NCBI GenBank assembly: GCA_037951105.1 | Contig: JBAMJV010009319.1 | Span: 49,345 to 113,344 of the forward strand | Origin: Echinarachnius parma | Lineage: Eukaryota; Echinodermata; Echinoidea; Clypeasteroida; Echinarachniidae | Direction: 5' to 3' | DNA: 64,000 nucleotides | Shown here: positions 320-33,351 of the stretch, one piece after another | How the letters are laid out: the number at the start of each line of letters is the position of its first letter | Numbering within the stretch: the first letter of the stretch is position 1 | Made by a program: the position numbers and the translations under genes | The notes under the pieces: generated by a model | Seen by the model: the letters and a program-made list of their open reading frames with translations, nothing else | Told to the model about the DNA's origin: nothing | The model's database searches: none

Positions 320-958
<639 letters not shown>

Positions 959-2002: not shown

Positions 2003-2056
2003 ATGGGATGCTGCACAAGGGAATGTACGATGATTACTATATGTATTATACAACTG
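2003..2056 (+). CDS. NKAIN: NKAIN coding exon 1 (start codon)
   Basis: This exon encodes 18 residues beginning MGCC and ending in IIQL, then a consensus GTAAGT donor at 2057. The start is chosen because the family begins with MGCC followed by a Cys-rich start of the first membrane helix. An in-frame ATG lies upstream at 1978 but its added residues do not resemble the family. Coding ends in phase 0, matching exon 2. Confidence 0.9.
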
Positions 2057-5000
2057 GTAAGTTTCAGCCCCTTTTCTATCTTTCAAAGGATCGTGATTTT
2101 GGAAATAATTTTAGTGCGTGTGTATTGCGTCCAGTAGCCGGGAGGCCAGAAGCAACCACGCCGGAGATTAGGCGTTGGAGTTTCGCAGTTCATCGATAGC
2201 TTCTGTTGACTTCAGTGTGCGACTTTTGTGTGACTCGGTTACTTATTCTTATTGGCCAAACTGCAATTTAAAGAGATGATTTGACAATCCTTGATCATGA
2301 TGAATTTTATTCACCATTTTGCATTCTACATATTTTGTTTACATTTCCTCTGTTCATTGCTTTATTGTCAATAACATTTGTCCAGCTCCAGAAATAGAAT
2401 GCAGAATCATTAAATCAGTCCAGATAAATTGACAAAAATTCATGTCATTTCCAGATGAGATTACAATTTTCAAAAACATTCTTGTAATTTATGTTGATCA
2501 TACAAAGATAATTTCATTGGCAATGCATGAAAATCTCACAGTGCCACATCATGATTGTTTTCTTTCAAATTCCAACGCATATTATTTGAAGAAAAAAAAA
2601 TTAACTAACTAACCAACATCAACAAAAAAGTAACATTTTAATTTTTATTTAATATATGATACATTTTCATGACTTTTTGTAAAGTTCTAATTCTAACGTT
2701 GTATTATAACCCCAATTTGTTTGTATGATTTACAGAACACAGACAAAACATTCTTCCTCAAAAGAGATCCGTAAAATGCTGGTTATTTGGTCAAATTTTC
2801 ATTGTATTTGATTTGGGGCTGATATAGAAAGGAGTTATTTTGATGTCCAATAAAAGACAAAATTACAATGTATTCATACATGGGCATTCTCTTCGAAGAC
2901 GTGCCCATGACTTGGCATGCTTGACTAAAAGAACCGATGCGCTATACAAATTACACAGAACTCGTACTCGGGTTCTTTTAGTCATGCATACCAAGTCGTG
3001 GGCACGTCTTCGAAGAGAATGCCCATACATGTGTTAAAGAACAAAGAAATGCAATGCATGAAAAGTTACAAAATAATCAAAATAACTTGTTTTTTTTAGG
3101 AATCAGAATGTTTTTCCTTCTAGTTCTACATGTAGGCTACTTTGGTGGAATGTATTTTCAATTGGTCAAAAATGTTGTGGAATCAAATATTCAATGAAAT
3201 ATTTAAATCAGCAAAATTATGATATCAATCTTGTTTGCACTAATTAGTATACCACGTATGTTTGAATGAGTTAATTAATAGTTTGACATAATTTGCATTA
3301 ATCAGATCTGGTAGACAGATTTCCATCAAAATTGAGTTGACAAATTTATACAGTGCATGTTAATTACTACTGTATGTACATGTAGTGCCACATTACTTAA
3401 CACGCATATTTTTTGCGGAATGTGTGTTTCATTGCCAAGATCTAGAGGTGCCAGGGTCATAATGATAAACTCATGAATAATGCCCCCTATCAAAGAACTT
3501 ACAAAATTTAAAAAAGGAAAGAATTAAGCAGGGCTTTAAAACATGATCAATATCTGCTTGCCTGGGGCAAGTAAATATTGATGTTGGGCAAGTAAAATGT
3601 CATAATTAGTCTATTTTGGCTGCGAGATTGGGCAACTAACATTGCTATTCAACTCCAATTCAGCTATTTTTTATACGTGTAAATGATATTCTTTGTATAA
3701 AATTTATAAGTGAAAATGAATTCATGATTAGTTAGAAAAGTGTAAGAATGTAATTTTTAATATTTGAATCAGTTTTCAAAATAACATACCGTATGTAATT
3801 TAAATTTCACAATTATGGTTCATGTGAATTACATTGTTCTTTTTGTATTTAATTGAATGTTTAGCACGTGCAATTCAGCTTGTTTGCCATATTGTGTTCA
3901 AAATAAATACCATGAATGTTTAATAAATACAAGAAAAATGTAATTCTGTATGTGACTGTAAATCTCATCTGAAACAAGTCCGAAATTTAATTTAACAAGC
4001 AAATCGAGCTACATGTACCTCTAGCGTTAATTTTTGTTTCACATAATTAGTTTTAGGGGGCAAGTAAATTTTCTGTTTGGCCAATTCATTTGACAAGTCA
4101 TGATTTGACTTGCAAGCATGAACACAGTGAAAAAAATACACGGGAACTCAGGGCAATTAAGGCCCCCGAAATGAAAAAAGGAGAACCGGAAGATGATATA
4201 ATTCACATCTACAGTTGAATGCAAAACAAATGTTAGAGTGCTATTTTAATGCATGTAAACTTAAAAGTAGCCCCCCAGCAGGCTTTGAAATATACAGGGG
4301 CTGAGGGTGATTTTGACCCCTAATTTTCAAAATAGCCCCCTGAAATCAGTAGGTAGCCCCTAAAATGACCATCTGTGAAATATTGTGTGATCTCCATCAG
4401 ATTGAAAAAGTAGCCCTCTAAAATTAAAAATAAATTCCTTCATTGCCCCCCCAAACAAATTTTTTAAAAATATTTTTCCTGCCTGAGCAGGCAAGTATGA
4501 AATAAAGTTAGTGCGGACTGCAGAGGCTTGCACTAAGACAGGTTTAAAAGGTTTGACTGTATTCTATTGTATGATGAGTCACAAATTAAGCCTGTCCGAC
4601 CTAAATGGAGAATCAATTTAATCCTAACCACGCAATGCAAGAGTCAGTAATAGAAACAGTAAACCCAGGAATAAACGACTGATTGGATGTTTGATTGGTA
4701 CCCTTCAGAAGCTCTCAGATACGGGACTCACTAGATGCAGTGTCCCGCAATAATTATTAGGATTGTTTTCAGAAATGCTGACCGTTCGTTCCGTGAATTC
4801 ATTTATGCCCAATTCATTTATGCCCAATTCAAGATACCAATAATGAAGATAATATATTTGTCTTTGGTAGACATTCAGTGGCTATCCAAATGCAAAAAAA
4901 ACAACACACTAACAACAAGTAAGCAAGAGATTTAAAATCTGAAAAATAAGAATTATCATTCAGGTATATCATGTACTAGTACACTCATACTGTACTACAT

Positions 5001-8000: not shown

Positions 8001-11000
8001 CTCTCTGTTCGGGCAAGTAAAATTTGAAAAGTTATGACTTTACTTGTTCGAATGGGCCAGTAAGGAAAAATATTAGTGAGGAGGCTTGATTATAAATGTA
8101 CATGTTATTGGATCACTTGTAGTTGTATGAATGCTGAATTATGAATATTAGGGAGTTTTGATGCTTGAATGAAAAAGTGCGTTGATAATTGTTTGCTCGT
8201 GATATAATCAATAGTCACAACTAAATGTCAACTGACCTTATAATATGTATTACAGTACAACATGTTGAAAAAAAAATTTGTACTTCCTGAATATGAAGGT
8301 GATTTACTTTGGGAGTGCTCACAAATTATGACTGTATTGTTTCATTATACCACACCACAGGGAAGTTTCAACATAGAATCATAGAAGGTACAGTACCTTT
8401 CTAGATTTTGCATCCTTGATAGAGTTCTTGAATTTGAAAGTAGGCAAAGGGTTATTTGATAGAATAATTTATTTTGGGAAGTTTGCCAGTAAATCACTCT
8501 ACCCCATCATCATCATCAAAGTTTCAAACTTCCCTGTTTATTAGTCATACCTGGACAACAACAAAAGAGAAATTAAAACAACAACAGTAACAGCTGGTTT
8601 TCTGGCAAGCTCATTTTATTAATTTAATGAGAGAAAAAATAGCAAAGTTCTTGAATACTTCCAATTCCAATTGTTAGCAGTGAAAAAAATACATGATGGC
8701 TCAGGGTCATTTACATATTATATGTACAGCTCCTGAAATGCTAAAACGAATATTAAAGTAAACCTGTGACATACAATGTAGTGACCACCCAAGGGAAACA
8801 AGAAAATTGGCCAATGTGGACAGGTGACCCCATACCACTGTTTTTCACAGGGAATCACTTTTGGTGACCAGCAGTGAACATACACATGGCTCAGGGTAAA
8901 TTTACCCCCAACATGCCAACATTGAGACCTTGAAAATCATATTTAAAGGAGCCAAGTTCAATGCAAAACAAAATTTAGAGTGCTTTTTTTTTTCATGCAA
9001 GCAAGCTTGAAAAGTAGCCCCTGAAAATGAATTGTATTTGTTATCCCTTGGTGACCAGTATCTAAGGCAGGTTGGCTGAGCTCTGTTATCCCTTGGTGAC
9101 CAGTATCTAAGGCACCTTGGCTGAGCTCTATTATCTCTTGGTGACCAGTATCTAAGGCAGGTTGGCTGAGCTCTTTAGTCAGGTGGCCAGGCACTAAGAC
9201 AGGTGTGACTGTATCTAGAATTCAATGATGGATGGGATTGGATGGGGTCGTTTTGTATAAATATCATACATTATCATTCACACATTGTACTGTAGTATGC
9301 GTCTGCTTGCCATACATGTATTATCATTTCAAATATTTACTCAGGAGGCAATGTCAAATACACTGTATACACATGAATATATGTAGTGATGTTTCCTGTA
9401 TAATGTACACAGGGGAAAATGTGATATTTATTTTTCGGGGGCTACTTTTCTAGTTTGCCTGCATGAAAATAATACCGTAACACTCTTTTTGGCATTTCGG
9501 TTTGCCCTGCGCCCCCTGTGTGTTTTTATCACTGTTTATTATCCGTCGGTATGATTATATGCCAAGAATAGTTCTAACCAAACATTGCCACTTCAACATA
9601 TACATGTACATGTTTGATTTCTAACGAGGATGTTATTCGATGACGTGAAATTTATACAAATTACTCACATATTTCGCCCGCCACCCCCGTGTATTTTTTT
9701 TGCTGCACTGAATTGCCTGGTTATGAAATCATACATGTGCTACCAAGTGAGGCTCCCGAAAGTGCCCCCTTAAATATGACACAACCACATTTAATTTGAT
9801 GATATTTTCTTTTGTCAGATTGCAACGTTGGAGAAGCTGGTCTTTGATGTTTGGGTCTACATGTTTGTGCTCATCAGTGATGGCTTTCTAATACTGTTTA
9901 TTTTTGTTTTACATTGCTTACTGAATCTAAAAATAACACAAGGAACCTATATTCAAAATTAGCACCTAAATAGAGAATCTGTTAGATTTTACAATTTTGA
10001 TATTTTTTCTTTGTACAGATTGCGACGTTAGAGAGACTGCAGGTCTTTGATTTCCTGGGCTACATGTTTGTGCCTATCATCAGTGGCTTTCTCAACATAA
10101 TACCATTTACTTCTATTGTTTCTCTTACATCAAATCTAAACTGACACAAGTGATAGATTTAAGAGATTTATCTGTTTGATTTTTTGCTATTTTGTCTTTG
10201 TACAGATTGCAACATTAGAGAGACTGGTCTTTGATTTCCTGGGCTACATGTTTGTGCCTATCATTGGGGGATTCATTAACATCATCTTAGTCTTATTCGG
10301 TCTCTTTGGATCCTACCAATATCGACCAAAATTCATGGTTTTGGTAAGTAAAATTATTAATGTTTTTGTTTTTACATTTATACATTGCCCCCTCCCCCCC
10401 CCCCCAAAAAAAAAAAAAAACAACAATACAAAACAACAGCAACAACAATAATTAAAAGTATAATGTGTGTACTGTAGTCATGTGCCAATATTGATGACAA
10501 TTCAAAATTCAGAAAATTTAAAACACGAAACAAGAATAATTTGAAGTCTAATGTCCGTAGTCTAAGCGGGACGATCATCCCGATATTATTTTTGAATTCT
10601 ACCGAGACAGAATTGTTCTTTACCTAACAGTGTTACATAAAATCATTACTTTAAATGTTCACTGGAAAAAACAATTAGAAAGCATTACCAAAATGTAGCT
10701 TGTTAACATTTGAAGAAATAAATAATTTTAAAAAACTTGGACTGGAAAGAGTGAGCACTCAAAAAACCTTTCACAGTGAAGTAATTAGCTCTAAAGTCAA
10801 GTACTTTTGCTTTTTTTTTTTAACAAGCTCTTTTTATGCAAACGATAATGTAGATCACTTGTCCATGTATAATGCACCATTGATACAGTATTGGGCTTGT
10901 AATGTAACCAACTTGTTTCTCTATGCCGCTTTTATGGTGTGCATTTAGTCTGTTAAATGGCCCTGAATTACATGTTTGCAGAAATACACAATGCATTGTA

Positions 11001-14000: not shown

Positions 14001-17000
14001 GACATTATTTATTATGTTCTTTCTAAAAATGAAGTCCAAATTTAAAAATTCAAAAAAAAATGTTTATGACATCATTTACATGTATGACATCACACTTCAC
14101 CACTCTATTGAAGCACCAGTTTTTAGCTCACCTGAGCCAAAGGCTCAAGTGAGCTATTGTGATCGCTTTTCGTCCGTCGTCCGTCGTCCGTCGTCCGTCG
14201 TCCGTCGTGCGTCGTGCGTCGTGCGTCGTCCGTCGTGCGTCGTCCGTAAACTTTTTACATTTTCATCTTCTTCTCCAGAACCAATGATCGGATTCCAACC
14301 AAACTTGGCAGGAATCATATTTAGGGGTAGAGGAACCAAAGTTGCTAAAATGGTGGGCGTGGCCCCCAGGGGGGCCCTGGGGGAGGGCACCAAATGTAAA
14401 AAATATGTAAATTTTAAACATCTTCTTCTCAAGATCCAGAAGTATGACAGACCTGATATTTCATATTTAGATGCCTCTATTGATGAAGAATGAAAGTTGT
14501 TCACAAGATTTTTGTGGGTGGTCCCATAAGGGCCCTGTGGGCGTAACAGTTTTTTTGGGGGCCCTACCATAGGAAATATACATTTTCATCTTCTTCTCCA
14601 GAATCAATGATTAGATTCCAACCAAACATGGCAGGAATCATCTTTAGGGGTAGAGGAACCAAAGTTGCTAAAATGGTGGGCGTGGCCCCCAGGGGGGCCC
14701 TGGAGGAGGGCACCAAGTGTAAAAAATATGTAAATTTTAAACATCTTCTTCTCAAGATCCAGAAGTATGACAGACCTGATATTTCATATGTAGATGCCTC
14801 TATTGATGAAGAATGAAAGTTGTTCACAAGATTTTTGTGGGTGGCCCCACAAGGGCCCTGTGGGCGTAACAGTTTTTTTGGGGCCCTACCATAGGAAATA
14901 TACATTTTCATCTTCTTCTCCAGAACCAATGATTAGATTCCAACCAAACATGGCAGGAATCATCCTTAGGGGTAGAGGAATCGAAGTTGCTAAAATGGTG
15001 GGCGTGGCCCTCAGGGGGGCCCTGGGGGAGGGCACCAAGTGTAAAAAATATGTTAATTTTAAATATCTTCTTCTCAAGATCCAGAAGTATGACAGGCCAT
15101 CGCAGAATGGCCCCATAGGGTCCCTATGTGAGTGGGGTTAATATGCTGAAGTGGTCAGTGGCTGGTGAAATGTGTTAAGCTTTGTCTTATATGTGTGTCT
15201 GTCTTTTTTTATGATTCACCCAAACATTATGGTAAATCATAATGTTAGGTACAGGGGATCAAAAGTTATTGATTAAATAGTACATCACATTATAGATTTT
15301 GGCATGATTTCAACTGATTTCATATCTTCTGAGGGTGCCAGAGAGAACATGCGCCAGATGTGAATTGATTGACCTCAGGTGAGCGTCGTGCCCCCCTGGG
15401 GCTCTTGTTATAGATAAAGGGTGTGGCTCTTGTTTATCTCATCTAACTTGTTTTAAAACGTGTTTACATTTTAAATTGCAGTATTTAAGCACTGGTTTGG
15501 ATAGAGGGTGTGTTTAGCTTCTATCGTTAAGCTCATACGTAGAAATGGCTTGCCTATAAATTGACTGCCCAGGGCAAATAAAATGCTGTAAATGGTCAAG
15601 TTTGATTACCTTATCGGGCAACTGACTTATTTTTCTTCTAAACTATGAGGGCCAAATCCTTTCATTGTAAATCTCATGTAGAAGTATGGGGGGGGGGGGG
15701 GGGGGCAAGGCAATTTTTTGCTTGGGCAAGTAAAATCTTCATATTTATGGTTTTACTTGCCGTTCTAACAAAGTCAGTTTCGAGGTTGGGATGTTTCCAC
15801 TTGATAAATATTAGCATGAAACACAATTCAAAACGTTGGTTATGGGTACGATAAGATAAACACACGTAGAGATAGGTATATGCACTGTGAATCAGCGGTA
15901 GTCCAGTAGATTGTACGAGTAATGGAAAGAAAGTCGTTTCTCAATTAATTAACGCATTCCGTATAAAAGCCTAGATGTACAGAACATGCTACTGCTGTGT
16001 ACTTCTATTTTACATTGAAGCGCTATATAAATGAAGTTATTATTATAATTATTATTATTGAAGAACAATGTATAAATATTGCATCAATTGTATCTAGCTG
16101 GAAGGAGCTCACAAATTGATTATTATAGCAACATTTACAATGCTGACTGACAACAGACTGATGAGTTAAATGCAACAGAAATTAGTGTTTGATGCAAATT
16201 GTTGAAGGTTTTTTATTAATTTATTTTAAATGTTCAAAAAGAAGCTATTTACTTTCTGATTTTCCCTCATTTGCTACATATATGTACATTACATGTAGGT
16301 GAATAAATTGTGCTGTTTTCCAAATGTTTTAACTATTTGTCTTTAATTAGTGCTGTAGTGAAATGGTTTCATGATTCCGTTACCCGGTGTTGCCGTGGAC
16401 AATTTCAAGATGACTGTTACCCGTTTCCCAAATACCCAAAATACTACAGCTCACTATTTTGTCTATTCATGTTGTACTTTCCCCTTCAGTACAAAAATGT
16501 AACTTTAATTGTGGGTGCATGTAGTCTGTCAAACAATTTACATGTAATTGTTCTGTATTCTTCCTTGTTATTTGTCCTCTGCAGTATTCATTATGGCAGC
16601 TATTGTGGCTTGGCTGGAATGTATTCATCGTCTGTTTATACCTAGGTGTTGGCTTTCTTTCAATTGAGGTAAGTGAGCAAACAAAATAAAACAAAACATT
16701 GGCCTTATTGTGTGGTTTGGGAAGTAGGCCAATTGAGGTGTCATCGATTTAGTTGGAGTGATCCGGTCAAATTCAACCTAAAAATCGATTGGTGCTTCCA
16801 CATTTCTCTTGTACCTTGTTGTTTGATTAATCAACATAAGAATCAAATTGGTTTTGATTTGTCAAATGTCTCCCTAATTATAGAGATTTTTATGATTGAA
16901 TTGAAACGCGTTAATTTAAGACTTTTCATCGTCTGTTTTTTATACCTCGGTGTTGGCTTTCTTTCAATTGAGGTAAGTGAGAAAAAAAAGAAAAAAAACC

Positions 17001-20000
17001 ATTGGCCGTATTGTGTGGTTTGGGAAGTAGGCCAAATGAGGTGTCATTGAGGTGTCATTTATTGGAAGTGATCCAGTCACTTTGTCAAATTCAACCTAAA
17101 AATCACTTGGTGCTTCCACATTTCTCTTGTACCTTGTTGTTTGGCTTTTAAAAACAGGAGAATTAAATGGGTTTTGATTTTTCAAATGTCTCCCTAATCA
17201 GGCTCTGTAGCCAGGATTTTTCATGGGGAGCTGTGTATTTACAAAAACGGGACCGAGACCACTTGCCAAAAGAGAATCGAGACCGGTAAAAAGTGGACTG
17301 AATTTGGGGGGGGGGGGGTGCATGTTACGCACCCCCCCCCCCCCCCCGGCTACGGGCTTGCTAATCATGGAGATTATTATGATTAAATTGAAATGCGTTC
17401 AGGAATACTTTAAATACGATTGCAGTCAAAATCATTCAGCAGTACAGTACATTAGGTGATACAATGTAAATCTGAAATGATTTTTTTTGTTTGATAAGTT
17501 CTTTTAGCAGCGCTCTCCATTTTCAACAATTATTATTTATTACTATTTTGTATATTCAATTTTGTATTCATTTTATCACCCCTCTGTAAGAATATATTAT
17601 GTTTATCATGTTGTAAATTTATTTTTGTTGAAAATGAAAAAATAAATGAAAAAAAAAACAGTGTTCTTTTGTCCTATTTTGAAATTTAACATAAATTAAA
17701 ATTGTACCAGCATTTCTAGTTTTCTACTGACATGTAAGTTATTTGTACTGGTTGATTAATTGTGAGTGCAACAACTGCTACGAAGCCATCTAAAGTTAAG
17801 TTGGTATGAATTATTGATTTCAGATAAATCATGGTACGGCTATAAACCAACTTCATGCATGTACTACTGTATGCAGTTGACACTTTTCATGGAACAACTT
17901 TTTTTTTAAAATCAATAACACCTGTTTTGTCAAATCAGATCTATACATGAGATGGCCTACTTTTGAAACCTACATACTTATTGTAGAGTTCCTCTCCTTT
18001 TGATCTATTCACATGTCAATGGCAATTAGCTGCCTGTGGCATGCATGTATCATGGTCACATTTATTTGGGGGGGGGGCATATTTCTTTATTTAAAACAGA
18101 TTTTCACCTTCTGGTTTTTTGTTATTGTTTTTATCTTGAATTATTAAGGGCACTTTATATTTCTTTATTTAAAAAAAAGTATTTTCTCATTCTTTTTTTT
18201 TTTTTAATATTAATTTTGCCAATATTAGGGGCACATGCCCCCCCCCCCCTCCACCAACTCCCGTCCCCTGTACTAGCTAAGCCACTCTGTGCAACATTTT
18301 GTTTACTTTTCATGTAAATCAAAATATCAAATCTTTTATAATATCTGTTGGCTTCCTATTTGCTTGGACCCCACCCCAAATGTATTCAAAATTGATTTTA
18401 ATCAGAGCTAGTGTTTTGAGTGTTTGCAATACACTTCATGTATCTTTGGGCAGATTTTGTTTCATTTCATTATGTATGTGTACATTTTATGTACAGTATG
18501 TTTGTATTTCATGTACACATGTGTACATAATGTACAATTCACACAAAGTGTGCACAGTACACTTCATATGCAATGAGCACATGTGTACAGTAGACCTACT
18601 CGTAACCCGTAGCAACGGTTCTACAGTACTTACTTAGCAGAGTGTATTTTTGGACATTTTGTTAATTGGATTTCGCTTTAACAACAGAAGGAAATGCAAC
18701 ATCAAAAATAGCATGAAATTTGCCATAAATTCACTTCAATGCTTAAATATATAAATGTAAACTAAAATATATATACCACCATGGACATATTGTTAATTGG
18801 ATTTCACTTTAACAACAGAAGGAAATGCAACATCAAACAGCATGTAATGCCATAAATTCACTTCAGTGCTTATATATTGAAATGTAAACCAGGGCTCAAC
18901 ACTAGCACTTGCCTGCTTGCCCAGGGCAAATAAACATTGATGTCGGGCAAGTAAATCTCATAAATGGTCTAGTTTGCTTGCCCGAGTGGGCAACTTAAAT
19001 TTCTTGACAACTATAAGAACAGAATGTAGTTCCTTACATGAAAATCTCATCTAGAAGTAAGGGGGCAAGTAAATTGTCTGTTTGGGCAAGTAAAATTTGA
19101 ACAATTATGATTTTCCTTGCCCAAACAGGCCAGTAGAGAAAAAAGTTAGTGTGGAAGCTTGTGTAAACTACCATGGAGTATATTGTTAATTGAATTTCAC
19201 TTTAACAACAGAAGGAAATGCAACATCAAAAATAGCATGTAATTAATTGCCATAAATTCACTTCAATTCATATGAAAATTTAAACTATATATTACACCAT
19301 GGAGTAATTACTATCTGTGAAAACGCATCATGGTCCCGTTGCAGAAAGAGATACAATCGATTGTAAGTTACAATTTATTGTAAGTCAGAAAATTTGCGCG
19401 TTACAACCAATCAGATTTGCGCATAATTGAATTTTAGAACACATGATCTGACTTACAATTAATTGTAACTTAACAGGGCCCATATCTATTTGCAACTGTA
19501 CCAAAATTCAGGTATATGAATATATCCTTATCACGGATAGGATATTTATTATCTAGACACAATTGATTTGATATGATTTGCTACATAAGGAAACGCAACA
19601 TCAAAAATAGCGTGTCAAAAGGGTTAATGATAATTCATGGTAATTATGATTTAAACTTCCCTTTTTACTTTAAAGGTAAAAAAGATTCATGGAGAATGAA
19701 TGTACATAAATTGTGTTTTTTTCTTTCTGAAAATTAATGGTGATGTGCGAAATAATAAATGTATCTTATTCCTAGTGCAGTCTGATTAAAAATGTAAATT
19801 ATTTGATTCATATTCTGTACATTGTATACATTATTTATGTACAGTTTAACAGGGCTCGACACTCCCACTGGCCTGCTGGCCCGGGGCCAGTAGAATTGCA
19901 CTTTAGGCCAGCAAAAATGTATAAAAAGTCATATTTGGTGGCCCGATCAGGAAAGCAGATTTTCAACCCGACATTGACAAAATTAGAATAATCTTGTTTT

Positions 20001-26000: not shown

Positions 26001-29000
26001 TACGTACTAAAGGGGCATTTGAAAAAATATAACCCTATTTTATTCTTCTCTTACCATAAGCTAAACAACACGGTAGAAGAGAAACGAGGAAGCTCCAAGT
26101 AATTTTTGTGGAGTTAGACACTTTACAGGCATCCCTTTAATAACATATTTTCTTGTGGTTGATCAATTATTCAGTTGCCTGATAGGGCAACCAAACTACA
26201 TTTGTAGACCTGTACATGTTTATTAAATTTTACTTGCCCGATAAGAAATTATCAATTTTTACTTGCCCCGGGCAATATGGCAATGGCTAACTATGTTAAG
26301 CCCTGCATTCCATATTGCCTCTGTTACAGCCAGTAGAGATTGCAATCAATAATTGTGCTGGTCAAATCATTGAGCTCCTTGAAAAATTAAATTGTTCTCT
26401 CTACATCTTTTATTCATTCAGGGTTTTTCAAATTTAAGTATTACCAATTTTTGTTGTATTTTATGATACCAGCATGTCTATGACAAATGTCATGAATTTA
26501 TATTACAAGTCTCCTTTGAGATGGAGATTACAATCAATACTTGATGCTGGCTCCAGGCAATCTGGTCCTAAAAGTGCCAAAAAGTTCCCCTAAAAATCAA
26601 CAACCTAGCTGTAAATTCGCATCTAATGCAGAACAAAATTAAGTGTGATTTGCATGCAGCCTAGCTTGTATACTTGCCCCCCCCCCCCCCCAAAAAAAAA
26701 AAAATTTAATAATAATAATAATTTTTAAAAAAATGGAAAAAATAAATAAATAATAATAATAAATAAAATAAATTAAATTAAATTAAAATAATAATAATAA
26801 TTGTATTTGTCCTTGTTAAGATTTGGAACATGAATATTATAATGTACATCGTTAAACTAGTCTACTTCCTCATCCAATAATAACAGGGGATGAAAAACCA
26901 TTGCTCAACAATATCAGTAGCTAATTATACATACGTATATAAATATGATATTGAAATTCATATTGCAGTTTGGCATTGTGCTGCAGCCCTTTCAGCTATG
27001 ACATGTATGCACCTTACACAATACACACATACACACACAAGAAAACCACAATGGAACGGTACAATACAATGAACGGTGCATTATTGGAGTGGCTATTTTC
27101 ATTATTCCACTCTCGGTGCCATCATCATTCCTATTCTCATTTCTCATATATTTATTGCAAATAAGATAAAAGCTTTCCCCCGGCGTGCGGCAAAATTCTT
27201 TCCCGGCAGGAGTCATCAGCTTACCACGGAGATAAATGACTGGACGCAGCGTTGCCCTGTGGAGTTAAAGTTGAAGCGTTGGTGATCGGTCGCCATCAAT
27301 CTCTAACATTAACATTGACATTTAATACAGTTTGTTGAAATTTAGCAATTGCCCAATGGCTAGAGTCCACCAATAATTTCTTTCTTTGCAAAACAAAATA
27401 ATAAATAAATAACCTATCTGCAGCTTGGTTGCCGGATTCAAGCCACCGAATGTGGAAACCAAAGCAGGCCCCGAAAAATAAATGGTATTTTTCCCCTGCG
27501 ATCCGGTTATTTATATCCATGGTTTCAATCATCTGCCATCATTGCCAGTGCTTTATATTATGAATCTGATGGCTTTATTTTTAATGTACATAAACCTCAT
27601 GTGGCTTGCATTGCGTATACTATGTTTGCATGCAGGCATACAGGATATTGGTATTATACTTCATTTGGAAGAGGATTTCTATTATATTATTTAATTTCTC
27701 CATTGATCAGTGAAATTTAATCTAGAGATTAAATGCTCATCATGACTCGCTTTGTCTTTCCCTGGATACCCACTGGGGACAGTATGCGGCGTAGCAGGAT
27801 CCTACTGATTGCAGGGGGGGGGGGGGGGGGCCTCGCTCTTTGTATTTCTCGATATTCTTGTAAATTTTACCTTCAGTTTTTTTTTTGTGTCCCATTTGTT
27901 GAGGGCCGGGCACCTGGCCTTCGTAGCCTGCTCAATATTGGTATCTGGAAGAGGATTTCCATATTATCCATTGATCAGTGAAATTTAATCTCTAGGATTA
28001 AATGCTCATCATGACTCGCTTTGTTTTTCCCTGGATACCCACTGGGGATAATGGCGCAGCATGGTCCAACTGATTGCAGGGGGGGGGGGGGGGGGGGGGG
28101 CAAGCTATTTGTATTTCTTGATATCCTTTTAAATGTTACCTTGGCTTTGTTTTTTATCGTGTTGTTTTTTGGTCCCATTTGTTGGGGGGCCGGGCACCTG
28201 GCCTTTGTAAGCTGCCATTATATTGGTATTATAATTCATTTGGAAGAGGAATTCCTTTCATTGATCAGTGAAATTAAATCTAAAAAGCGTGGTGCAACTG
28301 ATTGCGGGTGGGGGGGGGGGGGGAATGCTCTTTGTATTTCTTGATTTTCTATAAATTTTGATTATTTTGGGGGTCAAATTATGGTGTCAAAATATATAGT
28401 GTGGTCCAACTGATTACAGGGGCATGCTGTTTGTATTTCTTGATTGTTTTGACGTCACTAGCTGACTGGGAATTGGGATAACTATCTTGTAGCTGCATCT
28501 ATGTACACAGTGTGCAATGTATGGAATTGTTGCCAAAATTATAAATAGAATGACTTTTTGTGATTTTGTATTGATTCAGGAATCACAATCTTTTAAATTT
28601 CCATTTGGTTTCAAAAGAATAGATGGACATGAATTGTTTTAATTTTTTCTCCTGAGCTGCTTGATTGCAACAATTGCTGCATCCCCCGTATTGTAGAATT
28701 TGACAAAATAATTTTTGTTTCATTCAAAGATAATTTTTTGTTTTATAGTACACTTTATCTCAGATTTTTATGAAGACAGTGTGATAAGTGTATTTTTCAT
28801 TATGTAACATTTTTAAGCAACTGATACATCAATTATATATTTTTTTACTGTACCTGAACTGTTTGTCAATCCCTGACCTCTTTATAGCGATATTACAGTT
28901 TCTGTCTTTTGTTTTTACGTTTTATAGGAGCACCATTATATACTGGACTTCCACACAAACAGCGAAAACTGGTGGCGGGAGCACGGGTTCAATTGTTCGG

Positions 29001-31183
29001 TGACGTACAACATCACATCACTGCCTTCGGGGGAGACCAGGAGCGAGTTATTGTCCGTCGAGGGTTGCCTTCTCGACTACAAATACATTGAGGTCATCCA
29101 TGCGGGTGTCCAGTGCGCTCTCTGCGTAAGTAGATTCAAATACATCAAGGTCATCCATGCGGGTGTCCAGTGCGCTCTCTGCGTAAGTACAGTCAAATAC
29201 ATTGAGGTCATCCATGCGGGTGTCCAGTGCGCTCTCTGCGTAAGTACAGTCAAATACATCGAGGTCATCCATGCAGGTGTCCAGTGCGCTCTCTGCGTAA
29301 GTACAGTCAAATACATTGAGGTCATCCATGCGGGTGTCCAGTGCGCTCTCTGCGTAAGTAGATTCAAATACATCAAGGTCATCCATGCGGGTGTCCAGTG
29401 CGCTCTCTGCGTAAGTACAGTCAAATACATCGAGGTCATCCATGCAGGTGTCCAGTGCGCTCTCTGCGTAAGTACAGTCAAATACATCGAGGTCATCCAT
29501 GCGGGTGTCCAGTGCGCTCTCTGCGTAAGTACAGTCAAATACATCGAGGTCATCCATGCAGGTGTCCAGTGCGCTCTCTGCGTAAGTACAGTCAAATACA
29601 TCGAGGTCATCCATGTGGGTGTCCTGTGCGCTCTCTGCGTAAGTACGGTCAAATACATCGAGGTCATCCATGCGGGTGTCCAGTGCGCTTTCTGCGTAAG
29701 TACAGTCAAATACATCGAGGTCATCCATGTGGGTGTCCAGTGCGCTCTCTGCGTAAGTACAGTCAAATACATCGAGGTCATCCATGTGGGTGTCCAGTGC
29801 GCTTTCTGCGTAAGTACAGTCAAATACATCGAGGTCATCCATGTGGGTGTCCTGTGCGCTCTCTGCGTAAGTACGGTCAAATACATCGAGGTCATCCATG
29901 CGGGTGTCCAGTGCGCTCTCTGCGTAAGTACAGTCAAATACATCGAGGTCATCCATGCGGGTGTCCAGTGCGCTCTCTGCGTAAGTACAGTCAAATACAT
30001 CGAGGTCATCCATGCGGGTGTCCAGTGCGCTCTCTGCGTAAGTACAGTCAAATACATCGAGGTCATCCATGTGGGTGTCCAGTGCGCTTTCTGCGTAAGT
30101 ACAGTCAAATACATCGAGGTCATCCATGTGGGTGTCCAGTGCGCTCTCTGCGTAAGTACAGTCAAATACATCGAGGTCATCCATGTGGGTGTCCAGTGCG
30201 CTTTCTGCGTAAGTACAGTCAAATACATCGAGGTCATCCATGTGGGTGTCCTGTGCGCTCTCTGCGTAAGTACGGTCAAATACATCGAGGTCATCCATGC
30301 GGGTGTCCAGTGCGCTCTCTGCGTAAGTACAGTCAAATACATCGAGGTCATCCATGTGGGTGTCCTGTGCGCTCTCTGCGTAAGTACGGTCAAATACATC
30401 GAGGTCATCCATGCGGGTGTCCAGTGCGCTCTCTGCGTAAGTACAGTCAAATACATCGAGGTCATCCATGTGGGTGTCCTGTGCGCTCTCTGCGTAAGTA
30501 CAGTCAAATACATCGAGGTCATCCATGTGGGTGTCCTGTGCGCTCTCTGCGTAAGTACGGTCAAATACATCGAGGTCATCCATGCAGGTGTCCAGTGCGC
30601 TCTCTGCGTAAGTACAGTCAAATACATCGAGGTCATCCATGCGGGTGTCCAGTGCGCTCTCTGCGTAAGTACAGTCAAATACATCGAGGTCATCCATGTG
30701 GGTGTCCAGTGCGCTCTCTGCGTAAGTACGGTCAAATACATCGAGGTCATCCATGCGGGTGTCCAGTGCGCTCTCTGCGTAAGTAGAGTCAAACCTGTCT
30801 ATAAAGACCACCCAAGGGAGACAGAAAATGTGGTCTTCATCAGCAGGGGGGCTATATGTGACCGGCTATAGCAAAACCTTGCACTTGTCAGTAATTCATG
30901 TATTGAAGAAATTCGCATTTTAAGTTCACATAATGTGTGTACAAGACTTATGATTGTAACATTGAAACAATCATATCTTCGCCAATAATTGATCAATTTG
31001 TTAGAACAAGGCATCAAATGAAAGCTTAAAAATCTACATTTTGATTTTTACCGACAAGTGCAGGGTTTTGGTATAGCCGGTCACATATAGACAGGTTGAT
31101 TTATGTATTTTTCAAGAGAGTCTATAAGTGGTCTCTATCTACAGGTGGTCACTAGAGCAGGGTTGATTGTTATACACTTTGTT

Positions 31184-31223
<40 letters not shown>

Positions 31224-33351
31224 GTTAAGTTAAAACAGAAACTGAATCTCATTTAATGAATTATTATTTAAACAGCCAGAAATTGATAGACATGAAATGA
31301 GACAGACAAACAAATTTTATGTTTTTTTTTTTTATCATTGAGAGAAATACTTTATTATACTTACATGTATAATACTTATAATAATTACAAATAATGTTTT
31401 TGTTATTTTCTTTGGGTTTTTTCGGCCACCAACAATTAGAAAAGTCAACAATTTGGTTGCCCAAAGGGCCACTAGATGGAAAGTTAATATAGAGTACTGG
31501 TGTAGTTTTTTGCAACCAAAAATTCCATTCGGGCCACCGATAGAAAATTCAAAACTTTGGTGGCTTAAAGGGCCACTAGATAGAAAGTTAATGTGGAGTA
31601 CTGGTTAATCCTGTTATTACTACAGTATCCTAAAAAATTTCTGCCTTATTTTTTTTTCTGCCTATCTTTTCCTTCCAGGTTATTGGGATAATATCAGCGT
31701 TAGTTATGATAAAGAAGTTCAACGAAGAAGAAGATAGTTGTAAGTATGCATGAATGCATCTATTAGAAAGAGCAGGGGGAACACACAGATTTTAAGTTGA
31801 ACTTAAATTAAGGTTTAAGACTTAAATAAAGTTATGGAAAGCCGTTTGTAGCCCTTGAATGAAAATAATATTCAAGAGCAAAAATGCACATATTTTAATG
31901 AATTTTAATAAATTTGACATCAAGAATATTAAATCTCCTTGATAATAGAACCAAAATTGAATGTTGCATTTTAAAACTAATGCATAGCAAATAATGGCTT
32001 TCCATAATTTTAAGTTCAACTTAGGATCTTTGTACAACACCCCCTAGTTGAAAAATGCATTTTCAGTCCTTGGCATTTTGCATGCTCTTGAATGGAAGTA
32101 AGCATCGTATGCTTATTTGTTTTATTTAGTAAATTTGACTTCTTTTCGTTTTTAGTTTACTTTGGAGAGACGAGAATATTATTTTGTTGATTGTAAATTT
32201 ATGATTTTTTAATTAGTTTTCTGTTTGAATAGAAGAATCTACCATAGGAATTTTCATTTCTGTTTTTATTTTGTTTTCAATGTTAGTGAACATTTTCTCT
32301 ATCTATAGTATTATAGTGTGTAGATTTTTAAATGCACATTCAATACATGTTGCATCTCGTGTGACTCAATACATCATATACATGTTTAGACATTCATGAA
32401 GAATGACTTGTCATGTACCTGAAGTGAAATTTTACGATAGAATTGCAAAAACACCCTATTGAATAAAGATTGTCCGTTTGATCTCGATCATCTGAATTGT
32501 ATTGTTTCATTGCATCACTGGGGACATTTTGATTGTCATGTCAACTGTAAGGACAGAGGAGGAATTTGTTTTATTTTTATTTTATTTTATTTGTTTTGGG
32601 GGCGGGCGGGTTCTTTTCTAGCTTGTCTGCATACAAATAGGACTCTAAATTTTGCTTTGCCAAAAATGTATGGGGCTCTTGTAGACATTTTGGGGACTTA
32701 ATTTCCCTGAAGTGAGCTCTGTGTATTTTTGTTCCCACCATAGTGTAGGACAGGTATTGTGTTCTGAACCCTAGGGGGCTCTTTTTCTGCATTACAATCG
32801 AGGCTCATTTGGACACTTATGTCGCTAAAATTGCCCAGGACCCTCAATTGGTAGTCCCTGTGGATTTGTTTGCCCACTGCAGTCATTCTGTAAAATTATT
32901 CTGCGTTACTTCGGTATTCCCTCGCACTTATTCCTTATAGTTGATTTCTAATCATTTGGGTTTGTGTCAAGTTTTATAACAGCTTCTGACCATCATGGGC
33001 ATTGAAAAGAGGATTTAGGGACGAACAAACCGTCACAGGAGCTTTCTAGCGTAGTAGTCTAGCAATCGGGAGGCCTCAGGATTGAATCCCGGGGCGAAGC
33101 CCTATATTCTTTGCTCAATTTAATTTATACTTCTGGTCAGTTTTCCTAGATGTTTGAAATAATAACAAAACATTATACATGACAATTGACGTCAGAGAGT
33201 CCCCTGTAACTGTGTTTGCACCGTGTACATCTCATGTTCTTTTACTTCCGTAGTTGATTTTATCGGTGGCTTTGATTCGTCCTACACTGCCTACAACTCG
33301 CACGCACAAAAGCCACCCGCTACAATGCAGTTGGAGCCTATTTATGTGTAA
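2003..33351 (+). CDS. NKAIN: NKAIN family protein, Na+/K+-ATPase interacting; whole gene, six coding exons
   Basis: Joined exons 2003-2056, 10206-10343, 16585-16668, 28928-29125, 31679-31739 and 33254-33351 give 633 nt and 210 residues, close to the roughly 207-residue vertebrate proteins. All introns are GT-AG; the first four are phase 0 and the last is phase 1. Visible family features are the N-terminal MGCC, VFDFLGY near residue 26, an FG..QYRP segment near 53-59, WWREHG at 107-112, a YIEVIH segment before the last helix, and EEEDSFDFIGGFD near the C-terminus. Four hydrophobic segments lie at about 9-24, 32-53, 67-89 and 148-168. N114 (NCS) and N120 (NIT) are possible glycosylation sites in the loop between helices 3 and 4. 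Known family members bind the beta subunit of Na+/K+-ATPase in neural membranes; function here is inferred. The paralogue number cannot be assigned. The exon 4 donor is amplified 30-fold, so longer isoforms are possible. Confidence 0.93.
2881..3025. repeat. Hairpin-forming repeat, family H, copy 1
   Basis: Ends are TGGGCATTCTC and GAGAATGCCCA. The arms, including CTTCGAAGACGTGCCCA and its complement, pair along almost the whole element. Related copies are at 33466-33607 and 48070-48207. Confidence 0.85.
3529..4530 (+). mobile_element. hAT-like element, GGCAAGTAA family, copy 1, interrupted
   Basis: Starts CAGGGCTTT and ends TTAGTGCGGACTGCAGAGGCTTG. Reiterated GGGCAAGTAAA/GGGCAAC phrases are typical of this family. 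A second repeat type rich in TAGCCCCC (about 4265-4460, also at 25165-25330) sits inside it. Confidence 0.65.
5121..5376. mobile_element. Foldback MITE, family G, copy 1
   Basis: Terminal inverted repeat GTGAC(C/T)GGCTATAGCAAAACC at both ends, left end carrying a small TATAATA insertion. Other copies are at 21643-21893 and 30858-31084. Confidence 0.85.
5781..6177. mobile_element. TTAA-flanked MITE, family T, copy 1
   Basis: Ends TTAAAGGGATCTAGTAAC and GTTACTAAGTCCCTTTAA are inverted repeats and carry TTAA on both sides. A copy of nearly the same length, highly similar throughout, is at 24371-24766. Confidence 0.88.
7817..8088 (+). mobile_element. hAT-like element, GGCAAGTAA family, copy 2
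   Basis: Starts CAGGGCTCGACACC, ends TTAGTGAGGAGGCTTG, with several GGGCAAGTAA phrases on both strands inside. Confidence 0.75.
9041..9175. repeat. 45-bp tandem repeat, three copies
   Basis: Three head-to-tail units beginning TTATC(C/T)CTTGGTGACCAG and ending GGCTGAGCTCT, differing at a handful of bases. Confidence 0.9.
9819..9905 (+). pseudogene. NKAIN: Decayed partial copy of NKAIN exon 2 (echo 1)
   Basis: After TTTGTCAG the sequence reads IATLEKLVFDVWVYMFV, clearly derived from exon 2, then diverges before the exon's 3' half. It keeps an acceptor but no donor. The intron sequence after it also matches the next copy, so this is a tandem duplication of about 200 bp. Confidence 0.88.
10019..10105 (+). 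pseudogene. NKAIN: Decayed partial copy of NKAIN exon 2 (echo 2)
   Basis: After TTTGTACAG it reads IATLERLQVFDFLGYMFVPI, with an extra CAG codon, then diverges and meets a stop downstream. It lies 187 bp before the true exon and has the same acceptor but no donor. Confidence 0.9.
10206..10343 (+). CDS. NKAIN: NKAIN coding exon 2
   Basis: Acceptor TTTGTACAG at 10205 and donor GTAAGT at 10344 enclose 46 codons in phase 0. The exon encodes IATLERLVFDFLGY, the second membrane helix and the FGLFGSYQYRP segment. It is the third and only complete member of a tandem triplication; two decayed partial copies lie upstream. Confidence 0.95.
11793..12290 (+). repeat. Interspersed repeat with TCTATCGG motifs, copy 1
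   Basis: Contains GGATGCGTCCGGACGCATCC, TTCTATCGG phrases, TTCGGAACACGGCGTGCGAT and ATTGCGCAACAATTCTTCAC. The same blocks occur in reverse order and orientation at 45505-46322, showing an interspersed element. Confidence 0.8.
12606..13772. mobile_element. TACCGTATTTGTCGG terminal inverted-repeat element, long form
   Basis: Begins TACCGTATTTGTCGGTGTAT and ends with its complement. It carries subterminal TATTAACCGC repeats at both ends and an internal hairpin at 13157-13338. A 191-bp short form is at 54815-55005. No transposase is visible. Confidence 0.87.
13157..13338. repeat. Near-perfect hairpin with arms of about 85 bp
   Basis: Centred near 13247. The inner arms are GGGTCTATTTTGTTACGCGA and its complement around CCGGGAATTGGGGAAATCCCCGG-like sequence. 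Outer arms carry TAGCCCGCCATATCACTCAT. ORFs here are an effect of the palindrome. Confidence 0.9.
14127..15412. mobile_element. AGCTCACCTGAG element with internal 300-bp triplication
   Basis: Left end AGCTCACCTGAGCCAAAGG and right end CTCAGGTGAGC form short inverted repeats. Inside are a GTCGTCC/GTCGTGC simple repeat (about 14173-14250) and three tandem units of roughly 300 bp starting near 14265, 14575 and 14880. Each has TTCATCTTCTTCTCCAGAA and GTGGGCGTGGCCC. Open frames in the units are repeated non-coding translations. Confidence 0.8.
15548..15763 (+). mobile_element. Degenerate GGCAAGTAA-family fragment, copy 3
   Basis: Contains GGGCAAATAAAATG, CGGGCAACTGA and GGGCAAGTAAAATC in family order, with a G-tract of about 18 bases and no clear ends. 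Confidence 0.5.
16585..16668 (+). CDS. NKAIN: NKAIN coding exon 3
   Basis: Acceptor CTCTGCAG and donor GTAAGTGA enclose 28 codons forming the third membrane helix (WLGWNVFIVCLYLGVGFLSIE is its core). The aligned human family segment is WVTWNVFIICFYLEVGGLS. The 3' half of this exon is duplicated about 304 bp downstream. Confidence 0.94.
16640..17400 (+). repeat. NKAIN: Tandem duplication of the NKAIN exon 3 end and following intron
   Basis: The segment from the exon 3 end through about 16905 recurs at about 16941-17205, and its tail once more near 17362-17400. Shared blocks include GTGTGGTTTGGGAAGTAGGC and GGTGCTTCCACATTTCTCTT. Confidence 0.9.
16925..16972 (+). pseudogene. NKAIN: Partial copy of NKAIN exon 3 with intact donor (echo)
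   Basis: Encodes FIVCFLYLGVGFLSIE in frame, one codon longer than the true exon, followed by GTAAGTGAG. The 5' half of the exon and its acceptor are missing, so it cannot act as a normal cassette. Confidence 0.9.
18651..19310. repeat. 135-bp tandem repeat, three copies, split by a hAT insertion
   Basis: Each unit carries TTTAACAACAGAAGGAAATG and CATAAATTCACTTCA. Copies begin near 18655, 18785 and 19180. A partial fourth is near 19588. Confidence 0.85.
18890..19161 (+). mobile_element. hAT-like element, GGCAAGTAA family, copy 4, with target duplication
   Basis: Starts CAGGGCTCAACACTAGCAC and ends TTAGTGTGGAAGCTTG. It is flanked by TGTAAACC on the left and TGTAAACT on the right, a 7 of 8 match consistent with hAT 8-bp target duplication. 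The host repeat units show the uninterrupted site. Confidence 0.82.
19850..20162 (+). mobile_element. Diverged GGCAAGTAA-family relative, copy 5
   Basis: Starts CAGGGCTCGACACTCCCAC but uses GGCCAGTAGAA and GGCCAGC phrases instead of GGCAAGTAA. The right end is TGTGGGGCAC. Confidence 0.6.
21643..21893. mobile_element. Foldback MITE, family G, copy 2
   Basis: Ends GTGACCGGCTATAGCAAAAC and GTTTTGCTATAGCTAGTCAC, with an interior matching the copy at 5121. Confidence 0.88.
22060..22352. repeat. Direct duplication, about 90-bp blocks 190 bp apart
   Basis: Both blocks contain TTGTCTGAGCACTGATGTTG followed by ATCATGTATCCATGAT and a GACTGCAGA(T/C)CATCTA segment. Confidence 0.85.
22377..22900. repeat. 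About 172-bp tandem repeat, three copies
   Basis: Units start near 22377, 22552 and 22721 with ATCATATCAGYCCAACAAAT. They share GAAAGAGAACCTGCGC and CGTTCACTGGTCCATACA. The third copy diverges in its second half. Confidence 0.9.
23698..23985. repeat. Foldback element
   Basis: Left arm GGAGGTTTGTACAAACCATGG and GTCTACATCTATGGAATGC pair with the right arm GCATTCCATAGATGTAAACC and its continuation, around a loop of about 90 bp. Confidence 0.85.
24371..24766. mobile_element. TTAA-flanked MITE, family T, copy 2
   Basis: Inverted ends TTAAAGGGATCTAGTAAC and GTTACTAAGTCCCTTTAA. It is highly similar over its whole length to the copy at 5781-6177. Confidence 0.9.
25562..26305 (-). mobile_element. 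hAT-like element, GGCAAGTAA family, copy 6, split by a MITE
   Basis: In reverse orientation it starts AAGCCTCCGCACTAAC and ends AAGCCCTG. A TTAA MITE (25682-26140) is inserted inside. Confidence 0.8.
25682..26140. mobile_element. TTAA-flanked MITE nested in the hAT copy, with terminal repeat amplified
   Basis: Inverted ends ATTAAAGGTGCATCTGTAAAGTGTC and GACACTTTACAGGCATCCCTTTAA-like. The left terminus is present three times as a 43-bp tandem repeat (about 25670-25798). Confidence 0.8.
26683..26810. repeat. Poly-C, poly-A and (AAT)n low-complexity tract
   Basis: A run of C, then A, then AAT/AAAT-rich simple sequence. Confidence 0.9.
27630..28450. repeat. About 300-bp degenerate tandem repeat, three to four copies
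   Basis: Units share CATTTGGAAGAGGA, CATTGATCAGTGAAATT, CAACTGATTGCAGGGGGG and GGGCCGGGCACCTGGCC. Long G runs occur at the same place in each unit (about 27814, 28079 and 28309). Confidence 0.88.
28928..29125 (+). CDS. NKAIN: NKAIN coding exon 4 (proximal donor)
   Basis: Acceptor TTTTATAG and the first GTAAGT donor at 29126 enclose 66 codons in phase 0. It encodes the loop with WWREHG, NCS and NIT sites, and EGCLLDYKYIEVIH leading into the fourth helix. Its last 45 nt are the first unit of the 30-copy array, so the 3' end of the exon is ambiguous. Using the proximal donor gives the usual family length. Confidence 0.92.
29081..30790 (+). repeat. NKAIN: 30 x 57-bp minisatellite made from the NKAIN exon 4/intron 4 donor junction
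   Basis: The array is exactly 1710 bp, 30 units of 57 bp with no indels. Each unit has 45 nt of exon (AAATACAT...CTCTGC) followed by 12 nt of intron (GTAAGTACAGTC or variants). All 30 donors are intact. Variation is confined to a few sites: GCGGGT/GCAGGT/GTGGGT (Ala/Val), CAG/CTG (Gln/Leu), CTC/TTT (Leu/Phe), ACAGTC/ACGGTC/AGATTC, and GAG/AAG. In the NKAIN frame each unit encodes KYIEVIH(A/V)GV(Q/L)CA(L/F)CVSTV with no stop. Open frames on the opposite strand and in another + phase are by-products of the 57-bp period. Confidence 0.97.
30858..31084. mobile_element. Foldback MITE, family G, copy 3
   Basis: Ends GTGACCGGCTATAGCAAAAC and GGTATAGCCGGTCAC, in NKAIN intron 4 just after the 57-bp array. 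Confidence 0.88.
31182..31217. repeat. (CA)n dinucleotide microsatellite
   Basis: Uninterrupted ACACAC run in NKAIN intron 4. Confidence 0.95.
31679..31739 (+). CDS. NKAIN: NKAIN coding exon 5
   Basis: A pyrimidine-rich acceptor ending CCTTCCAG and donor GTAAGT at 31740 enclose 20 codons plus one base. It encodes the end of the fourth helix and the KKFNEEEDS acidic turn typical of the family. Confidence 0.93.
31740..33253 (+). other. NKAIN: NKAIN intron 5
   Basis: Contains a foldback MITE (31771-32046) and a weak tRNA-like segment near 33033-33100. I see nothing else supportable. Confidence 0.6.
31771..32046. mobile_element. Foldback MITE, family S, copy 1
   Basis: Left arm TTTAAGTTGAACTTAA and TTATGGAAAGCC pair with right arm GGCTTTCCATAATTTTAAG and TTCAACTTAGGATCTTTGT. 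A related copy is at 38788-39090. Confidence 0.75.
33254..33351 (+). CDS. NKAIN: NKAIN coding exon 6 (C-terminus)
   Basis: Acceptor TTCCGTAG completes the Phe codon from exon 5, giving DSFDFIGGFD, a strong family signature, then a short cytoplasmic tail ending LEPIYV and TAA at 33349-33351. The stop lies inside a consensus donor (GTGTAAGTAC), so a further short terminal exon is possible. Confidence 0.9.

What the first reader, a model, noticed from the sequence alone, without database searches (positions are those of the whole stretch)
29081..30790. A splice donor amplified into 30 perfect in-frame tandem copies
The NKAIN exon 4/intron 4 boundary has become a 30 x 57-bp array with no indels. 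Every unit carries an intact GTAAGT and no stop in the NKAIN frame. Any donor can join exon 5 in the same phase, so this one locus could yield 30 protein lengths differing by a 19-residue segment placed just before the last membrane helix. Retention of frame, donor and openness could reflect selection or simply recent homogenised expansion.
Basis: partly seen in the sequence, partly recalled or inferred. Interest (0 to 1): 0.92.

Follow-up and report, generated by a model that had tools for sequence, protein, structure and literature searches.

The report
Splice-donor minisatellite in an NKAIN gene
In an intact animal membrane-protein gene, the junction between an exon and the next intron has been copied head to tail 30 times, so 30 nearly identical cut-here signals sit in a row; it is probably a by-product of local DNA duplication in which the cell mainly uses the first signal, much like a known human case.

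Summary
Window 29080-30789 is a 57-bp tandem array of 30 units without length change, starting in the last 46 bases of NKAIN exon 4. All 30 units keep GTAAGT; none has a stop in the NKAIN frame. It is not perfect: 9 columns vary, giving 12 unit types. Splicing at donor 1 gives a complete 210-aa NKAIN (Pfam 243 bits). All 30 donors can join exon 5 in phase (210-761 aa).

Selection for many isoforms is not supported: two other frames are equally open, substitutions show no purifying bias, and 3 of 10 splice junctions of this gene lie in local duplications against 13% of sampled points; the other two duplications carry in-frame stops. Zero indels is mildly unusual (P about 0.14, my arithmetic). 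Identical donors under exon definition were spliced at the upstream one in five published minigenes (PMC9225289); human IFI6, a donor minisatellite, is described as using two downstream units. I favour an ordinary though striking minisatellite with donor 1 dominant. No RNA was available.

The parts
2003..2056 (+). NKAIN exon 1, coding part (MGCCTRECTMITICIIQL)
   Evidence: ATG to GTAAGT donor, phase 0; part of the spliced protein scored by Pfam
10206..10343 (+). NKAIN exon 2
   Evidence: AG/GT borders, phase 0, PF05640
16585..16668 (+). NKAIN exon 3
28928..29125 (+). NKAIN exon 4 (198 nt, ends at donor 1); its last 46 bases are the exon part of repeat unit 1
29080..30789 (+). 57-bp x 30 tandem array carrying the exon 4/intron 4 boundary
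29126..29131 (+). donor 1 (GTAAGT); further donors every 57 bp up to 30779
   Evidence: 30 of 30 intact
30779..30784 (+). donor 30 (GTAAGT)
30785..30871 (+). read-through end of the array frame, ending with its stop at 30871; includes the start of an interspersed sequence with partial matches at 40507-40479, in L027 and in L008
30852..31090 (+). MITE-like inverted-repeat element (43-nt arms, 93%) just downstream of the array, high copy in the genome
31679..31739 (+). NKAIN exon 5, whose acceptor would be the common partner of all donors
33254..33351 (+). NKAIN exon 6, coding part, ends QLEPIYV and stop
   Evidence: end position counted from 210 codons plus stop
16925..17031 (+). Diverged tandem copy of exon 3 end plus donor (second GTAAGT at 16973); in-frame stops lie between the two donors
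9790..10080 (+). Two diverged tandem copies of the exon 2 acceptor and exon 2 start (acceptor edges 9819 and 10019); both meet in-frame stops before the exon 2 donor

Best explanation
A 57-bp minisatellite that arose by tandem duplication across the exon 4/intron 4 boundary of an intact NKAIN gene and then grew and was homogenised by unequal exchange. CAAA stands both at the start of the array (exon ACTACAAATAC) and right after its end (intron GAGTCAAACCT), which suggests slippage or short-homology repair (inferred). The gene most likely still makes ordinary NKAIN by using donor 1, with occasional use of donors 2 and 3, and removes the rest of the array with the intron (inferred from published splicing behaviour, not shown here). 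That the unit length is divisible by three and open is a one-in-a-few coincidence copied 30 times, which lets minor longer isoforms stay in frame.
For: Donor 1 gives a full-length NKAIN matching profile positions 1-205 of 206 in one stretch, while donor-2 and donor-3 isoforms split the match in two. Introns of 8149, 6241, 12259, 2553 and 1514 nt suggest exon definition, and exon 4 would grow from 198 to 1851 nt with distal donors. PMC9225289 (abstract and the part of the Results shown): identical donors under exon definition, upstream donor used exclusively in 5 of 5 minigenes; near-equal human donors between long introns favour the upstream one. Block copying inside the array: units 1-2 recur as 5-6 and units 12-15 as 19-22. 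Local duplication is common in the gene: 197 of 1474 sampled points outside the array and 3 of 10 splice junctions (binomial P 0.14). GTAAGT-bearing arrays occur elsewhere in the genome. Neutral expectation for stops, donors and N:S is met.
Against: No transcript data, so donor use is inferred. Nine of 11 control arrays carry at least one indel type and this array none; pooled, 22 indel types per 100 substitution types give P about 0.14 for none among 9 (sums, division and exponential are my arithmetic). PMC9225289 also reports that, without matching donor strength, about 60% of human events prefer the downstream donor, with a majority in all four intron classes, and that with both donors weakened the larger-exon minigenes skipped the exon; it tested two donors in human material, not 30. 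Exon 4's donor pairs less well with U1 than the donors of exons 1-3 (-6.8 against -9.1 to -11.5 kcal/mol; exon 5's is -6.5), so leakage or skipping could be larger.
Confidence: 0.8

Rival explanations
1. A maintained multi-isoform generator: many of the 30 donors are used, and selection keeps frame, donors and openness, giving NKAIN proteins with a variable number of 19-residue inserts.
For: 30 of 30 donors intact and in phase, no indel in 1710 bp, no stop; 9 of 11 control arrays have an indel type.
Against: No N:S depression (6:3); intact donors and open frame expected by chance with P 0.34 and 0.68-0.76; two minus-strand frames are just as open; identical donors under exon definition favour the upstream one; inserts would fall at a conserved membrane segment.
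Confidence: 0.06
2. The array acts as a cluster of U1-binding sites that helps define exon 4 or protects the intron from premature cleavage, with only donor 1 cut.
For: 30 GTAAGT sites at 57-nt spacing, all with identical -5 to +7 context.
Against: No functional data; the spaced triple GTAAGT pattern is found at 3059 forward and 3172 reverse places in this genome, fewer than the backward-read control (15035 and 14395), so such clusters are not rare.
Confidence: 0.08
3. Copy number or homogeneity is partly an assembly product; the true array may be longer, shorter or carry indels.
For: One assembly of 14,790 contigs; the array was found at one place only, so there is no second allele to compare.
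Against: Nine variable columns in a structured order and a complete gene around the array show that unit variants were resolved.
Confidence: 0.06

Closest known systems
Human IFI6 (6-16, G1P3) minisatellite with multiple splice donors (Turri, Cuin and Porter 1995, NAR 23:1854)
   Same: [quoted passage not shown] alternative isoforms use two downstream repeat units as donors and three mRNA species result (title and description as cited in PMC4526556, passages seen; the original paper was not held). That it starts at an exon end is recalled.
   Different: From recall, IFI6 has a 12-bp unit in about 26 copies; here the unit is 57 bp in 30 copies, 46 bp of unit 1 is exon, and the insert falls at a membrane segment. 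Use of downstream donors is reported for IFI6 and not known here.
Competing 5' splice sites of equal strength (PMC9225289)
   Same: Identical donors competing within one exon under exon definition.
   Different: Two designed donors in minigenes rather than 30 natural ones.
NKAIN family, Pfam PF05640
   Same: Intact gene of six coding exons, 210 aa, whole-profile match.
   Different: Array at the exon 4 donor. In this genome the only other exon-4 hit below E 0.1 is a broken remnant, so no paralogue could be compared.

Membership tests
NKAIN (PF05640) | Whole-length profile match above the curated cut-off | tested here: met
   243 bits against cut-off 25.9, positions 1-205 of 206
NKAIN (PF05640) | Four hydrophobic membrane segments | tested here: met
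   Four Kyte-Doolittle peaks above 1.2 in the donor-1 protein; hydropathy only; the number four for the family is recalled
NKAIN (PF05640) | Interaction with Na,K-ATPase | not testable with these tools
   needs biochemistry
Splice-donor minisatellite (IFI6 kind) | Tandem repeat starts inside an exon end and runs into the intron | tested here: met
   array starts 46 bp before donor 1; that this defines the IFI6 case is recalled
Splice-donor minisatellite (IFI6 kind) | Each unit holds a donor consensus | tested here: met
   GTAAGT in 30 of 30 units
Splice-donor minisatellite (IFI6 kind) | In-frame unit so that downstream donors keep the protein frame | tested here: met
   57 = 3 x 19; predicted isoform lengths for 30 of 30 donors rise by 19 from 210 to 761 aa
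Splice-donor minisatellite (IFI6 kind) | Downstream donors used in real transcripts | not testable with these tools
   no RNA data held
Selected multi-isoform generator | Purifying selection on units beyond the first | tested here: not met
   6 nonsynonymous and 3 synonymous types; 2.1-2.6 synonymous expected of 9; 9 types give little power
Selected multi-isoform generator | Fewer indels than other arrays of like divergence | tested here: inconclusive
   0 here against 22 indel types per 100 substitution types in 11 control arrays; P about 0.14 (my arithmetic); coding status of controls unknown

The most novel reading that the evidence does not exclude
A natural molecular ruler: position-dependent choice among 30 identical donors makes a graded ladder of NKAIN proteins from 210 to 761 aa, with added half-helices before the last membrane segment, and array length sets the ladder in each individual.
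Probability: 0.05. Interest if true: 0.87.

Novelty: new member of a known kind. Interest (0 to 1): 0.45.

Why it matters
It is a natural test bed for how the spliceosome picks among many identical donors differing only in position, in an otherwise intact gene. It also suggests how a minisatellite born on a splice junction can stay harmless: the first donor preserves the protein, and in-frame units make leakage tolerable.

Tried and rejected
Rejected: that openness is special to the NKAIN frame. One further plus-strand frame is open from 29362 to 30786 and two minus-strand frames across the whole array; counted within the array, 3 of 6 frames have no stop.

Rejected: a second allele or paralogue as comparison. 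The array was found at one place only (that search scored 1 candidate of its first look). The only other exon-4-like hit with E below 0.1 (C12553, L008) matches exon 4 and 36 bp of upstream intron at 74% over 133 bp and holds stops; of its 60 blastn rows against the window none lies inside the array except a 48-bp row at 30781-30828 that covers its last 9 bases.

Rejected: the neighbouring MITE-like element as source of the unit. 62 bases lie between the array and its inverted arms, and the 39 other scored full matches in the genome start at 30851-30857 (40 of 3754 candidates were scored; one shorter partial row starts at 30834).

Led nowhere: predicted RNA accessibility of donors 1-6 differs little (0.31-0.43 mean unpaired). 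Literature searches for other donor minisatellites brought the IFI6 case and no second one that I recognised from titles and abstract starts; most of the listed papers were not opened. Searches for NKAIN splicing showed nothing on it in their listings. I opened five papers: passages of PMC4526556, PMC2572611, PMC3618361 and PMC2915984, and outline, abstract and part of the Results of PMC9225289. Structure prediction was not attempted. The species was not identified.

Full report
OBSERVATION. Tandem Repeats Finder reports 29080-30793, period 57, 30.1 copies, 96% matches, 0% indels. Cut in register from 29080, 30 of 30 units are 57 bp long. Nine of 57 columns vary and there are 12 unit types; the mean pairwise difference is 4.0% per site. 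So the array is free of length change but not perfect. GTAAGT is intact in 30 of 30 units, and the context from -5 to +7 is the same in all. There is no stop in the NKAIN frame across the array; that frame runs from 28928 to its stop at 30871.

GENE. The whole coding region of an NKAIN gene lies in the window on the plus strand: exons 2003-2056, 10206-10343, 16585-16668, 28928-29125, 31679-31739 and 33254-33351, with AG acceptors and GT donors at the internal borders. Spliced at donor 1 it encodes 210 aa that match Pfam NKAIN over positions 1-205 of 206 with 243 bits, in one stretch. Donor-2 and donor-3 isoforms score alike (241 and 244 bits), but the match breaks into two stretches. Donor 1 thus makes the normal protein. 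The unit encodes KYIEVIHAGVQCALC, the first half of the last hydrophobic segment, plus in most units VSTV from the intron start; each added copy would be an extra half-segment before the complete last one.

CODING CAPACITY. Predicted proteins for 30 of 30 donors run from 210 to 761 aa in steps of 19.

IS RETENTION EVIDENCE OF SELECTION? Four tests. (1) Other frames: within the array 3 of 6 frames carry no stop, two of them on the minus strand, so openness is a property of the copied unit. (2) In a simulation of nine random substitutions in the unit, no stop arises with probability 0.68-0.76 and GTAAGT stays intact with probability 0.34; no stop and an intact nine-base donor together have 0.12-0.14. 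(3) Nonsynonymous to synonymous types are 6 to 3; 2.1-2.6 synonymous of 9 are expected without constraint; nine types give little power. (4) Indels: in 11 control arrays of this genome (six chosen by me from the listing and fetched, three from the 200-kb sample, two from the window; the other arrays were not used) I count 22 distinct indel types per 100 substitution types, and 9 of the 11 have at least one. At that rate none among 9 has P about 0.14 (my arithmetic). One array, C97, was read by the program at about double its period.

HOW IT AROSE. CAAA stands at the start of the array (29080) and again right after its last unit (30790), which fits duplication at a short repeat (inference). Within the array, units 1-2 recur as 5-6 and units 12-15 as 19-22: block copying, as by unequal exchange. 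Local duplication is common here. 197 of 1474 sampled points of the gene outside the array have a copy within 1.5 kb, and 3 of 10 splice junctions do: exon 2 acceptor (two copies upstream), exon 3 donor (one copy downstream) and exon 4 donor (binomial P of 3 or more is 0.14). The exon 3 donor copy is separated from the real donor by in-frame stops. Both exon 2 acceptor copies meet in-frame stops before the exon 2 donor. Duplication across splice junctions therefore occurs in this gene without in-frame isoforms. GTAAGT-carrying repeats are widespread: the spaced triple pattern occurs at 3059 forward and 3172 reverse places in 1.2 Gb, below the backward-read control (15035 and 14395); these are places, not arrays, many overlap within one array, and only about 100 were listed, some of them microsatellites.

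HOW IT PROBABLY WORKS. Introns of 1.5-12 kb suggest exon definition. In PMC9225289 (abstract and the part of the Results shown) identical competing donors under exon definition were spliced at the upstream one exclusively in five of five minigenes, and near-equal human donors between long introns also favour the upstream one. Against this, the same paper finds about 60% downstream preference when donor strength is not matched, and exon skipping in the larger-exon constructs when both donors are weak. Here the donors are identical, and each step along the array also lengthens exon 4, from 198 to 1851 nt. I expect donor 1 to dominate and donors 2-3 to leak. No RNA was available, so this step is inferred.

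KNOWN PRECEDENT. [quoted passage not shown] 1995, cited in PMC4526556, passages seen); isoforms use two downstream repeat units and three mRNA species result. The original paper was not held; its 12-bp unit, about 26 copies and start at an exon end are recalled. The present array is a new, larger-unit member of that kind by structure; its use in transcripts is untested.

VERDICT. Real, well described, and attractive as a natural experiment; the extraordinary reading (30 proteins under selection) is unsupported. Interest 0.45.

Noticed in passing
window 9790-10264: The exon 2 acceptor and start of exon 2 exist in three tandem copies at about 190-200-bp spacing; the two upstream copies are diverged (79-87% identity), still read as NKAIN-like protein at their start, and meet in-frame stops before the exon 2 donor.
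   Followed up: yes
window 16609-17031: Exon 3 end, its donor and following intron are duplicated about 304 bp downstream at about 90% identity near the junction, with in-frame stops between the donors.
   Followed up: yes
window 30852-31090: MITE-like element with 43-nt inverted arms just after the array; 40 of 3754 first-look candidates in the genome were scored, and the 39 others match at 83-94% identity.
   Followed up: partly
L008 1469-1593 (G000:C12553): Degraded copy of the start of NKAIN exon 4 with some upstream intron, with stops.
   Followed up: partly
window 322-958: Long TATC microsatellite, 158.8 copies by TRF, open in all three plus frames for more than 200 codons.
   Followed up: no
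L045 6760-8124: A second large minisatellite, in the 200-kb genome sample: 52 bp x 26.4, 91% matches.
   Followed up: partly
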